A DNA stretch of 37,232 nt. It comes from an uncultured Lachnospiraceae bacterium. GTDB taxonomy: Bacteria > Bacillota > Clostridia > Lachnospirales > Lachnospiraceae. Numbering within the stretch: the stretch's first letter is position 1; every line of letters starts with the position of its first letter. The notes under the pieces are model-generated. The model saw only the letters and a program-made list of their open reading frames with translations. It had not been told where the DNA came from and did not search any database. The stretch spans positions 1-37,232 of the forward strand of contig CAMWJC010000028.1 of NCBI GenBank assembly GCA_947174495.1, read 5' to 3'. Made by a program: the position numbers and the translations under genes. This document shows positions 6,986 through 37,232 of this stretch, one piece after another.

Positions 6986-7018
6986 TTTTGTTCATTAAAT
7001 TAACGTTTAGCTGAGGTA

Positions 7019-7272
7019 GGGACTGAGTCATTTCAGCTTTCTGTGGCGATAGCGCCTTTCGGGATTTTGGGAACCCGGCCGTCACAAATGCCTATTAACT
7101 GCCCAGAGCCGAAACTCATACCCTGAATAATAGTTTCTATAAGACGAAATTATTTGTTCAGGGTATTTCGGACAACGTCTCTGGGCAGCAGCATTTTTGT
7201 GACAGCCGTTTCTCCAAAATCCATCGAAAGATCACTATAAGCCATGCGAAAGCTGAAACGACTTCAGTTCCC
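7019..7272. repeat. Long imperfect hairpin 1 of element A
   Basis: Nested complementary segments run over about 250 nt. From outside in they are GGGACTGAGTCATTTCAGC with its partner near 7249-7272, CTTTCGGGATTTTGG with CCAAAATCCATCGAAAG, GTCACAAATGC with GCATTTTTGTGAC, CTGCCCAGAG with CTCTGGGCAG, and ATACCCTGAATAAT with ATTATTTGTTCAGGGTAT. The apex is near 7145. Confidence 0.8.
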
Positions 7273-7379
7273 CTGCTATCACTTATACTATCGGCTAAAT
7301 ATGCTAACCGTCAGACTTTGTGTGAATTATTCAACATAGCTTACGCACTTAGCATATTACTACTTCTCAGCGTAAATCG

Positions 7380-7588
7380 AAATTCCCCGTTTAAAAACAA
7401 TGCGAAGAGCCTTTAAAATTTTTAGTGAAAAATCAAGAATCCGTCTTTCAGTAAATGTGCAGCCTGTTTTCTTTTGTTTGAACGTAGTGAGTTTGAAAAC
7501 AGGCTGCTAATATCATTTCTGAAAGCGGATTCTTAGATTTTACCTAAAAATTTTATCAGCCAAGTATTGTTTTTAATCGGGGAATTTC
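7380..7588. repeat. Long imperfect hairpin 2 of element A
   Basis: The arms pair in three tiers: AAATTCCCCG with CGGGGAATTT at the base, AAGAATCCG plus TCTTTCAG with CTGAAAG plus CGGATTCTT in the middle, and GCAGCCTGTTTTC with GAAAACAGGCTGC at the tip. The apical loop contains GAACGTAGTGAG. There is no T-run placed to suggest a simple terminator. Confidence 0.8.
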
Positions 7589-7653
7589 TAATCACACTTA
7601 GAATAGTACCCTCGCTAACCATTAATTTAATGACACTTGCAAACTATCGCCCC

Positions 7654-23716: not shown

Positions 23717-23899
23717 CACGTCAAGCATCACTATTGTTCATTAATAGATTGTACGATGCCTATCTCTTCTGCGCGCTTTTCCAGCGGAATAACCAAGTCT
23801 TAAAATCTCTTTTATGTTTTTAATGAAATTACTATCTAATGTTTTGGAGTTGACACAATAAATTAACGTTTAACTTGGGTATGCATATGCGAAACGTCC

Positions 23900-23984
23900 G
23901 CTCAGATGAAAAGAAATCCTTTCGTCAACACGCTCGATAAAGCGTTCGCGAATTGTTTCCTCAAGGATTTCTTTTCATCTGAGC
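23900..23984. repeat. Perfect 22-bp stem hairpin 1 of element B
   Basis: Arms 23900-23921 and 23963-23984 are perfect complements (GCTCAGATGAAAAGAAATCC and its partner). The 41-nt loop contains CACGCTCGATAAA followed by GCGTTCGCGAATTG, a module also found in the loop of the element C hairpin. Confidence 0.9.
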
Positions 23985-24119
23985 TGGGTTGTTGAATGAC
24001 GCAAAGCCCAATTAACCGCCTCGCTAAGGTCGAATGTTCCACTCTTTAGCAAATAGCCAGACAGTGGGTTAGGCGACTATAGTGGAATCATTAGCTGGTT
24101 TCTCGTTAGCCAATAATTT

Positions 24120-24255
24120 AACCCGGATAGAATCAAATTCTAAAGGAACCCTTCAAAAAGCGTTGGTGCTTAACGAGGTTCCTAACGAGTTTAGCACCAT
24201 TACGCTTTTTGTAGAACGAGAGTGGGGTGACGTAGAATTTGATTCTATCCGGGTT
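24120..24255. repeat. Perfect 23-bp stem hairpin 2 of element B
   Basis: Arms 24120-24142 and 24233-24255 are perfect complements (AACCCGGATAGAATCAAATT and its partner). The 90-nt loop holds an inner hairpin of AAAAAGCG/CGCTTTTT with TGGTGCT/AGCACCA. Confidence 0.9.
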
Positions 24256-24299
24256 TTCTTATTTCTATTTGAAACTCAGCTAAACGTTAATTTATCAAA

Positions 24300-25568
24300 T
24301 CATGGTTCCGCAATTCTGCTGACTCCCACATAAATATTTGAAATACTGTACCATGTTGGGAAATCTACTATTCCGTTTTGCGGAAGATTAAAAATTCCCT
24401 GAAAGGTTCTTACTGCCTGTGCAGTTGCCGGTCCAAAAATACCGTCTGCCGATACCTTCGGTATTGCCGGATAATTCTGCGCAATTCTGTTTAGCTGTTG
24501 CTGCATCTGGCGCACCTTATCCCCTGACGAACCGACGGTCAGATTATATCCCGGCCAGGAAGAGGGAACTCCTGCAACACTTTCTGCCGTATTAATATAC
24601 ATATCCGCTCCATAATAGTAACGAATAATCTCAATTGCAGAATATCCTTCATCTCCCAAATATTTAGATCCCCACTGGCTAAGACCGTTACAGGTTACCC
24701 TCTGTCCGTCACAATAAGATGTAAAAATAGGCTGTCTGACTCCCGGTCTTGAAAGGTAGTTGTTAAATATACTGTCCACCAATCTGCCGATGTTAGAATA
24801 GATATTTCGTCCCCTTATCCATTTCTGATCGTAGGCGGTAGAGGAGGTAATCGTAAAATTGTAGCCCCTGTTTCGGTACCATTCCGTATATACCCTGTTT
24901 AAGGTAAAGGACATAATGGCAAGTACATTAGCATAAATCGAAGCTTCCGGCCATGTAGCGTAAATTTCCGAGGAAGCTACATTCTTGATGTAATCCCGGT
25001 ATTTCACGTAATAATTAGAGGCTGTGCTATCATCTGGAACACCGTCATGTACGATCACATATTCCGGTACAACTACCCGGCTTAATACGATCTCGCCGCT
25101 CTCATCCACCGGTTTTATCTCATCCTCCGGAATCTTGGGCGGATACTCTCCATACAGCGTGTGATCCGGAATAACGATCACTTCTTCTTCCTGCGAGGGA
25201 GCTGTCTCTAAAGGTGTCATCTGTATGGGCTGTAATGCCGTCACATCCGGCAGAATTTCCGTTCCTGATACCATGACCGATTCATAACCGGGTGCATCCA
25301 CCTGGATATTATATTCAGAATATGGCTGATTCTCTTGTTCAGGCTCCATACTATACTCAAGGGGCGGCGCCGGAAGTTCAATGACTGCTGTCTGCCCCGA
25401 AGAATCCGTCTTCAATTGCTCCACGGTCACACCCGGAACTCCGGTATAAGAAATGGTCACGGTTGCATCCGAAACAGGAATCAGCCCCAGTGAGGAGGTC
25501 ACATTAATCTGGAGCTGTCCCAGACTCTGCGCGCCCGCCTGCGCATTATTAGAATTATTTTCAGGCAT
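24300..25568 (-). CDS. SleC-like spore cortex-lytic / peptidoglycan-binding protein
   Basis: The 422-residue protein has an N-terminal beta-sandwich domain (QLQINVTSSLG, VSDATVTISYTG) and a proline- and acid-rich linker. A middle domain with VASSEIYATWPEASIYANV, NRVYTEWYRNRGYNFTITSS and YCDGQRVTCNGLSQWG follows, as in SleC-type cortex-lytic enzymes and SpoIID/LytB-related domains. A C-terminal PG_binding_1 domain (VGSSGDKVRQMQQQLNRIA, DGIFGPATAQAVRTFQ) ends the protein. No classical signal peptide is visible. The likely role is spore cortex hydrolysis during germination. I chose the ATG at 25568, with AGAGG seven bases upstream; that site lies inside the hairpin at 25573-25614. It follows htpG. 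Confidence 0.75.
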   Translation of the reverse strand: MPENNSNNAQAGAQSLGQLQINVTSSLGLIPVSDATVTISYTGVPGVTVEQLKTDSSGQTAVIELPAPPLEYSMEPEQENQPYSEYNIQVDAPGYESVMVSGTEILPDVTALQPIQMTPLETAPSQEEEVIVIPDHTLYGEYPPKIPEDEIKPVDESGEIVLSRVVVPEYVIVHDGVPDDSTASNYYVKYRDYIKNVASSEIYATWPEASIYANVLAIMSFTLNRVYTEWYRNRGYNFTITSSTAYDQKWIRGRNIYSNIGRLVDSIFNNYLSRPGVRQPIFTSYCDGQRVTCNGLSQWGSKYLGDEGYSAIEIIRYYYGADMYINTAESVAGVPSSWPGYNLTVGSSGDKVRQMQQQLNRIAQNYPAIPKVSADGIFGPATAQAVRTFQGIFNLPQNGIVDFPTWYSISNIYVGVSRIAEP

Positions 25569-36933: not shown

Positions 36934-37232
36934 TCATTAAATTAACGTTTAGCTGAGTTTTAAATAGAAATACTAAAGCCCGGATAAAATCAAATTCTAC
37001 GTCGCCACGCTCGATAAAACGTTCGCGAATTGGCTCCTTTAGAATTTGATTTTTATCCGGGTTAAGCTATTGGCTAACAGGAAACCAGCTAATGATTCCA
37101 CTATAGTTGCCTAATCCACTGTCTGGCTAATTGTTAAAAAGTGGAACATTCGACCTTAGTGGAGTTTCCAACTGAGTTTTGCGTCATTCGATAACCCAGC
37201 TCCGATGAAAAGAAATCCTTGAGGAAACAATT
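36934..37232. mobile_element. Palindromic element C, truncated by window end
   Basis: TAAATTAACGTTTAGCTGAG occurs exactly at 36938-36957. It is followed by a hairpin (36979-37061), a linker (37062-37198) and the first arm of a second hairpin (from 37199), all in the same order as the reverse complement of element B. The linker shares long blocks with B, such as TTGGCTAAC, AAACCAGCTAATGATTCCAC and GTGGAACATTCGACCTTAG. The far end lies outside the window; from B, about 100 or more bases are missing. No gene is present. C is thus an inverted-orientation copy of B about 12.6 kb away. Confidence 0.78.
36979..37061. repeat. Hairpin of element C with shared loop module
   Basis: Arms CCCGGATAAAATCAAATTC (from 36979) and its partner (37040-37061) pair with one bulged T. 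The loop carries CACGCTCGATAAA then ACGTTCGCGAATTG at 37006-37032. Confidence 0.88.

What the first reader, a model, noticed from the sequence alone, without database searches (positions are those of the whole stretch)
23858..24295. Undescribed family of gene-less double-hairpin elements with a shared terminal repeat
Elements A, B and C all begin with TAAATTAACGTTTAGCTGAG or a close variant, and the two complete ones (A, B) end with it inverted. Each has two long hairpins flanking a linker. No transposase or other gene is inside. Perfect 22- and 23-bp stems in B and three copies in 37 kb argue for a mobile or actively maintained family. I cannot match it to a named family; a MITE moved in trans by a DDE transposase, or a structured RNA, are the main options.
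Basis: partly seen in the sequence, partly recalled or inferred. Interest (0 to 1): 0.8.

Follow-up and report, generated by a model that had tools for sequence, protein, structure and literature searches.

The report
Gene-less DNA hairpin elements with differing ends
A bacterium carries dozens of short, gene-less pieces of DNA built as two hairpins, and related bacteria carry the same hairpin tip on pieces with other ends, so it looks like a hitchhiking core that several jumping-DNA systems can move.

Summary
Element B (23858-24295) has at least 40 places in its own genome; its 15-bp end motif occurs 61 times there, 66 times in the nearest relative searched and 0-2 times in 35 other genomes of the genus. 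The folded part is wider: hairpin H2 (conserved cap of about 90 nt on a variable but paired stem of about 22 bp) occurs in 25 of 37 genus genomes and in other Lachnospiraceae. The stem covaries at DNA level (G.T no commoner than A.C), against a structured RNA. The same cap sits in compact palindromic elements with four other kinds of ends, with target duplications of 8, 8, 9 and (one copy) 10 bp. The family is best read as MITE-like mobile DNA moved in trans. The window's own class shows no target duplication in 43 copies, and no gene bounded by its ends was found. Of 15 loci comparable between the two species one kept the same element and two kept part of it; the rest hold another inside, an inverted copy, the A-type, a reduced form or nothing. 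Assembly error in these draft genomes could mimic part of that. An IS4-family element inside some copies is a nested guest, not the driver.

The parts
23858..24295 (+). element B, complete double-hairpin element (B-type), between two convergent genes
23859..23878 (+). left terminal inverted repeat of B (3 mismatches)
23900..23984 (-). hairpin H1 of B with the short cap (about 40 nt), cap read on the minus strand
   Evidence: I4, by eye
23985..24111 (.). linker of B
   Evidence: lies between the hairpins
24112..24263 (+). hairpin H2 of B with the long conserved cap; covariance-model match 24115-24259, E 8.8e-30
24275..24294 (-). right terminal inverted repeat of B (exact)
6992..7633 (+). element A: same ends, different inside (A-type), also multi-copy
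36934..37232 (-). element C: B-type copy in inverted orientation with the short H2 cap, cut by the window end; weak model match 36974-37067 (-), E 2.2e-9

Best explanation
B is a non-autonomous mobile DNA element (MITE-like): two DNA-level hairpins in opposite orientation between short terminal inverted repeats, moved in trans by an enzyme that reads the ends. The conserved part is the hairpin cap, which in this group of bacteria is carried by elements with at least five kinds of ends, so the core has been taken up by different transposase systems. Shown: copy number, conserved cap, paired variable stems without RNA-type wobble, different ends with different target duplications on the same cap, and different occupants at orthologous loci of the two draft genomes. 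Inferred: that the palindromes are kept perfect by template switching at replication rather than by selection for an RNA; that replacement at old sites is mostly ectopic recombination between dispersed copies; and that an unseen transposase first placed the window's class.
For: At least 40 places in G000; end motif 61/66 hits in G000/G032 against 0-2 in each of the other 35 genomes and 0-1 per strand for the reversed control. H2 model hits at E<=1e-6 in 25 of 37 genomes, up to 61 in one (at most 86 candidates scored per genome). 28-sequence alignment: 97.6% of cells paired (shuffled 76.5), 33 of 50 pairs changed on both sides (shuffled 26.9, reached by 1 of 500), covariation 0.637 (shuffled 0.226; slid at most 0.138). 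87 distinct hairpins: outer-stem cells 1821 Watson-Crick, 13 G.T, 27 A.C, 21 other. Cap-bearing elements of 150-300 bp: GTAACAGTTCAG ends, 8-bp duplication in 12 of 33 at up to 1 mismatch (shuffled 0.37); GTTACTTTTCAC, 8 bp in 4 of 10 (0.42); CACGGAAATCAATTTTCAG, 9 bp in 5 of 6; CAATGTCATT, 10 bp in 1 of 2. Two copies at different loci of G000 are 99.3% identical (L006/L011). Different occupants at orthologous loci.
Against: The window's own class has no target duplication: among 43 copies, at lengths of 6-12 and end offsets -4..+4, never an exact one and at most 2 within one mismatch. The two sites empty in a relative differ from the filled ones by about 5-12 bases, not by a clean duplication (by eye). 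No gene bounded by these ends was found in G000 or G032, though both are incomplete drafts that often break at the repeats. The IS4 transposase inside some copies has its own ends. One covariation measure is not above its control (further pair types 78, shuffled 75.9). Wrong joining of repeats in draft assemblies could produce part of the apparent exchange. No structure, transcript or transposition was measured.
Confidence: 0.72

Rival explanations
1. The ends are sites of a site-specific recombinase: each locus is a pair of inverted recombination sites, and the inside is a cassette that inverts and is exchanged between some 60 end sites per genome. This would explain the missing target duplication, the inversion and the A-for-B difference with kept outer ends.
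For: L005/L115 is inverted between conserved flanks; L004/L189 holds A-type instead of B-type with both junctions kept, L008/L190 with the left junction kept; no target duplication in 43 copies.
Against: At L106/L133 the changed parts are the hairpins inside the element, with ends and linker kept, which fits gene conversion better. No recombinase gene was searched for.
Confidence: 0.12
2. The apparent exchange at orthologous loci is an assembly artefact: draft genomes joined the wrong copy of a repeat to the right flank. The family would then be an ordinary MITE family with stable insertions.
For: Several contigs of G032 end at these elements; one G032 copy (L263) and others carry N.
Against: Most B copies differ from each other by some 10-20%, and A and B share only about 20 bp, which gives little overlap for a wrong join; the empty, reduced and single-hairpin forms are not explained this way.
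Confidence: 0.2
3. A structured RNA family whose genes were multiplied by a mobile element; the hairpins act in the transcript.
For: Strong covariation and fold energies; 27 of 48 loci lie between co-directional and 14 between convergent genes, where read-through transcripts are plausible.
Against: G.T is not enriched over A.C in the stem (13 to 27); the two caps of B lie on opposite strands; no Rfam match.
Confidence: 0.07
4. REPIN-like elements moved by a REP-associated tyrosine (Y1/HUH) transposase that recognises the hairpins.
For: Inverted pair of hairpins with a linker; no target duplication in the window class; REP units often lie close together in opposite orientation (PMC3733652, abstract and passages).
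Against: G000, with 50 hairpin hits, has no Y1_Tnp match (78% complete), while five genomes without hairpin hits have one; none of the 20 Y1 loci tested (of 33 matches listed) has the hairpin in its fetched flanks; units are about 150 nt, not 20-40.
Confidence: 0.04

Closest known systems
MITEs (miniature inverted-repeat transposable elements) of bacteria
   Same: short, gene-less, terminal inverted repeats, many intergenic copies; cap-bearing relatives have target duplications
   Different: one conserved hairpin cap occurs with several unlike kinds of ends; the window class has no target duplication; occupants differ at old sites
REP/REPIN elements (GTAG and CGTC families, PMC3733652, abstract and passages)
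   Same: palindromic units, often in inverted pairs, many downstream of genes
   Different: units here about 150 nt with a conserved cap; no link with Y1 transposases found
BOX elements of pneumococci (recalled) and Tn3-derived TIMEs (PMC4133298, search listing only)
   Same: non-autonomous and mosaic
   Different: no sequence link tested; here hairpin modules with covarying stems
IS4-family insertion sequences (NCBIfam NF033592)
   Same: a few cap elements have the IS4-type ends CAATGTCATT, one with a 10-bp duplication
   Different: in B-type copies the IS4 element is a nested guest in the cap, with its own ends and duplication

Membership tests
MITE | short, no gene, multi-copy | tested here: met
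   438 bp, no frame of 90 aa or more inside; at least 40 places
MITE | terminal inverted repeats | tested here: met
MITE | target-site duplication, window class | tested here: not met
   43 copies, lengths 2-12, offsets -4..+4, no excess over shuffles
MITE | target-site duplication, cap-bearing relatives with other ends | tested here: met
   8, 8 and 9 bp classes; the 10-bp class rests on 1 of 2
MITE | autonomous element with the same ends | tested here: inconclusive
   none found for the window class, genomes incomplete; for the GTAAC class one IS66 transposase fragment is followed by such an end with one mismatch
REPIN / RAYT system | units of 20-40 bp | tested here: not met
   hairpin model of 144 positions
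REPIN / RAYT system | associated Y1 transposase | tested here: not met
   none in G000 (78% complete); none of 20 Y1 loci has the hairpin
structured RNA | pairing with wobble tolerance on one strand | tested here: not met
   G.T 13, A.C 27 of 1882 outer-stem cells
structured RNA | stable transcript | not testable with these tools
   no expression data
IS4-family IS | ends read by the IS4 transposase | tested here: not met
   ends of B are TAAATTAACG..., those of the IS4 guests CAATGTCATT...

The most novel reading that the evidence does not exclude
The hairpin cap is an active recombination module: a DNA structure that lets different transposon ends be folded around it and lets dispersed copies exchange or invert their insides at fixed chromosomal sites, so that one core outlives many transposase systems and keeps reshuffling dozens of intergenic sites per genome.
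Probability: 0.17. Interest if true: 0.85.

Novelty: new variant of a known kind. Interest (0 to 1): 0.6.

Why it matters
A conserved non-coding core found with several kinds of transposon ends would mean that a MITE lineage is not tied to one transposase. The stems give a natural data set of DNA-level covariation, which is easily mistaken for a structured RNA. If the turnover at fixed sites is real, palindrome-driven exchange between repeats becomes measurable in these bacteria.

Tried and rejected
IS4 as the driver: the gene in G032 between inverted B-type ends (L267) looked like the autonomous partner, but its own ends CAATGTCATTAAGTTAA lie inside the cap. Nested copies have 10-bp duplications, TTACGGAGCG in L277 and AGCACTTAGT in L287; in L267/L276 the two sides are inverted copies of the same half, so no direct duplication is seen there. 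No match to the protein at E<=1e-10 in G000. Rejected as driver of the TAAATTAACG ends.

IS66 as driver: PF03050 matches in 5 of 9 genomes, two of which (G035, G064) seem to be the same genome. At the G000 and G032 copies only weak resemblances to the window's ends were seen (3-4 mismatches of 15), and no terminal inverted repeat of that kind. It stays a candidate for the GTAAC class only, on one fragment.

Viral or plasmid origin: 0 exact matches of the cap pattern and of an 18-bp end motif in viral contigs; no match of B in phages or plasmids.

Independent insertion at the same sites was judged less likely than exchange because locus-specific variants of the ends are shared (by eye).

Dropped or weak rows: the pair L118/L006 shares only 58 bp of flank and was not counted. 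Of 31 loci in the two joined-flank searches, 9 gave a G032 locus that I scored; the other 22 were not scored (contig ends, one side matched or none, different neighbours, or not followed). With the 6 pairs this makes 15. L109/L121 rests on a truncated G032 copy. L263 and L119 are rich in N: one search counts N as mismatch, so its linker value for L014/L263 is too low, and L119 comes out as best match because N is left out there.

The 9-bp duplications of the CACGG class appeared only after I moved its ends 3 bp outwards, having seen the flanks; with the first ends there were none (0 of 6). The shuffled controls include self-pairings, so for the sets of 6 and 2 they read 0.87 and 1.00 and say nothing.

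The stop-codon count has no control; my note gave 29 where the call shows 31. In one search the G.T excess inside the cap (99 to 25) comes mainly from one column that looks misaligned (49) and one short doubtful helix (37), so I draw nothing from it.

Full report
What is there. The 20-bp terminus occurs four times in the window with up to 3 mismatches and in none of 100 shuffles. B (23858-24295) has inverted ends, hairpin H1 (23900-23984), a linker and hairpin H2 (24112-24263); both strands fold far better than shuffles. It holds no open frame of 90 aa or more. The whole window has no Rfam match at the gathering score; a permissive scan of 23800-24350 gave seven matches, all far below their gathering scores. 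C is a B-type copy in inverted orientation with a shorter H2 cap, cut by the window end; A shares the ends but not the inside.

Copies. The own genome G000 (2.89 Mb, 78% complete) has at least 40 B-type places (40 of 82 candidates scored) and 33 ends at up to 2 mismatches, against 0 for the reversed motif. Over 37 genomes of the genus the 15-bp end motif (up to 1 mismatch) has 61 hits in G000, 66 in G032 and 0-2 in each of the other 35; the reversed control has 0-1 per strand in each. So in this sample the end class belongs to two species. A-type elements are multi-copy in both. At the site of B itself, the G032 flanks lie on two contigs that both run into element ends, the right one with an H1-type end where B has H2; the inside is not assembled.

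The wider hairpin family. In nine other genomes of the genus only the H2 region matched. A model of 28 such hairpins finds matches at E<=1e-6 in 25 of 37 genomes (G035 61, G000 50, G028 40, G032 38, G020 26; 12 genomes none; at most 86 candidates scored per genome, list cut). In the pairs that I read off that list the minus-strand hairpin comes first and the plus-strand one second, as in B. The cap is conserved, the outer stem is not: 56 distinct 5' arms among 87 distinct hairpins, a few of them with gaps or N. Pairing is kept: 97.6% of cells paired (shuffled 76.5), 33 of 50 pairs changed on both sides (shuffled 26.9; 1 of 500 reached it), covariation 0.637 (shuffled 0.226, slid at most 0.138); the count of further pair types, 78, is not above shuffles (75.9). 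One listed contig (L332, a Lachnospiraceae MAG) has the window's end class, hence my placing of the window. None was found in viral contigs.

DNA or RNA. A paired RNA tolerates G-U but not A-C on the transcribed strand; a DNA palindrome treats them alike (general knowledge). The outer stem has 13 G.T and 27 A.C among 1882 cells, so I take the pairing to be kept at DNA level; the alignment was fitted to the model, which favours paired cells but not one wobble type. Template switching during replication can create and restore perfect hairpins (PMC8794818, abstract); that it acts here is inference.

Different ends on the same cap. Among loci L200 and later (unnamed genus genomes and named contigs; some may be the same genome, and elements with the same first 60 bases were counted once), elements of 150-300 bp with a full cap have four other ends: GTAACAGTTCAG (33; 8-bp duplication in 12 at up to 1 mismatch, 6 exact; shuffled 0.37), GTTACTTTTCAC (10; 4, 3 exact; 0.42), CACGGAAATCAATTTTCAG (6; 9 bp in 5, 4 exact, after moving the ends 3 bp outwards) and the IS4-type CAATGTCATT (2; 10 bp in 1, exact). 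In G035 an IS66-type transposase fragment is followed by an end like the first class; that IS66 ends begin with GTAA and give 8 bp is recalled. The window class shows no duplication in 43 copies of both species, some loci counted twice.

Occupants at orthologous loci. Fifteen G000 loci could be compared with G032 (6; 4 of 16; 5 of 15). Flanks, measured for 12 of them, are 90-98% identical. One locus has the same element (L099/L193, 96%). Two have kept part: L106/L133 kept ends and linker but not the H1 stem or H2 cap; L014/L263 kept ends and H1 and changed the H2 cap from long to short, the rest being unclear for N. Four hold a B-type inside no nearer than other copies (L027, L029, L013, L109; ranks 8, 8, 6 and 11 of 13). 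One holds a B-type copy inverted relative to both flanks (L005/L115, rank 5 of 13). Two hold an A-type element (L004/L189 with both junctions kept, L008/L190 with the left one). Two hold a single-hairpin form (L020/L264, L103/L261), two hold remnants (L098/L260, L104/L262) (by eye), and one is empty (L028/L184; loss and never-inserted cannot be told apart). Several loci share variants of the outer end between species, such as ATAAATTGACG at L029/L120 and TAAGTTAACG at L109/L121 (by eye); the first also occurs at L025, so it is not unique. Wrong joins in draft assemblies remain possible.

Sites. At L028 the G028 site has five bases, and at L011 twelve, where G000 has the element; no duplication is seen (by eye). 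At L100 the G028 site has a terminator-like hairpin instead (by eye). Of 48 loci (both species) 27 lie between co-directional, 14 between convergent and 6 between divergent genes, 1 unclear. Of 61 ends towards which a frame reads within 250 bp, 31 have the stop codon at -1..+12 of the end and 15 exactly at its first base (no control).

The IS4 guest. A 434-aa IS4-family transposase (NF033592, E 8.6e-52; PF01609) lies between B-type ends in G032. IS4 elements with their own ends lie in caps in 3 of 9 examined cases (L276, L277, L287), and three further loci show a cap-IS4 end junction (L176, L081, L085). Matches to this protein occur in 11 of 37 genomes, not in G000.

Mechanism and limits. I hold the family to be MITE-like mobile DNA whose conserved core has been carried by several transposase systems, probably with later exchange between copies. 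Which enzyme placed the window class is open: no Y1 transposase match in G000 and no hairpin near 20 Y1 loci; recombinase genes were not searched. Paper searches listed nothing that describes this family; most subscription journals are not in the library. Papers: PMC3733652 (abstract, outline and 12 passages), PMC8794818 (abstract and start of the introduction); others only in search listings.

Noticed in passing
L276, L277, L287 (G032, G020); junctions in L176, L081, L085: IS4-family elements (ends CAATGTCATT) sit in the conserved caps in 3 of 9 examined cases: the cap looks like an insertion hotspot.
   Followed up: partly
G000 C13, C31, C1, C5, C10 (L295-L299): Giant nested single hairpins (about 455-533 bp by folding), some with ends like TTCAGTCTCATAATTTAA, with a copy-specific, largely paired segment outside an inside related to A-type.
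   Followed up: partly
flank of L006 (G000 C34): A tandem motif TTGCATCATAG beside the element matches many places in G032, G028, G013, G035 and G020: another dispersed repeat of the genus.
   Followed up: no
G000:C14:51456 (L050) and G000:C12:43127 (L047): Single ends without a partner found, each followed by a gene; at L050 the next frame looks like a beta-lactamase-type protein (own reading, no search made).
   Followed up: no
G000:C16:44721-44836 (L273) and G000:C27:4059-4237 (L112): Mini elements of about 116 and 179 bp with both ends and at most one full hairpin.
   Followed up: no
G028:C41:94527-94773 (L266): A terminator-like hairpin occupies the site where G000 has an element.
   Followed up: no
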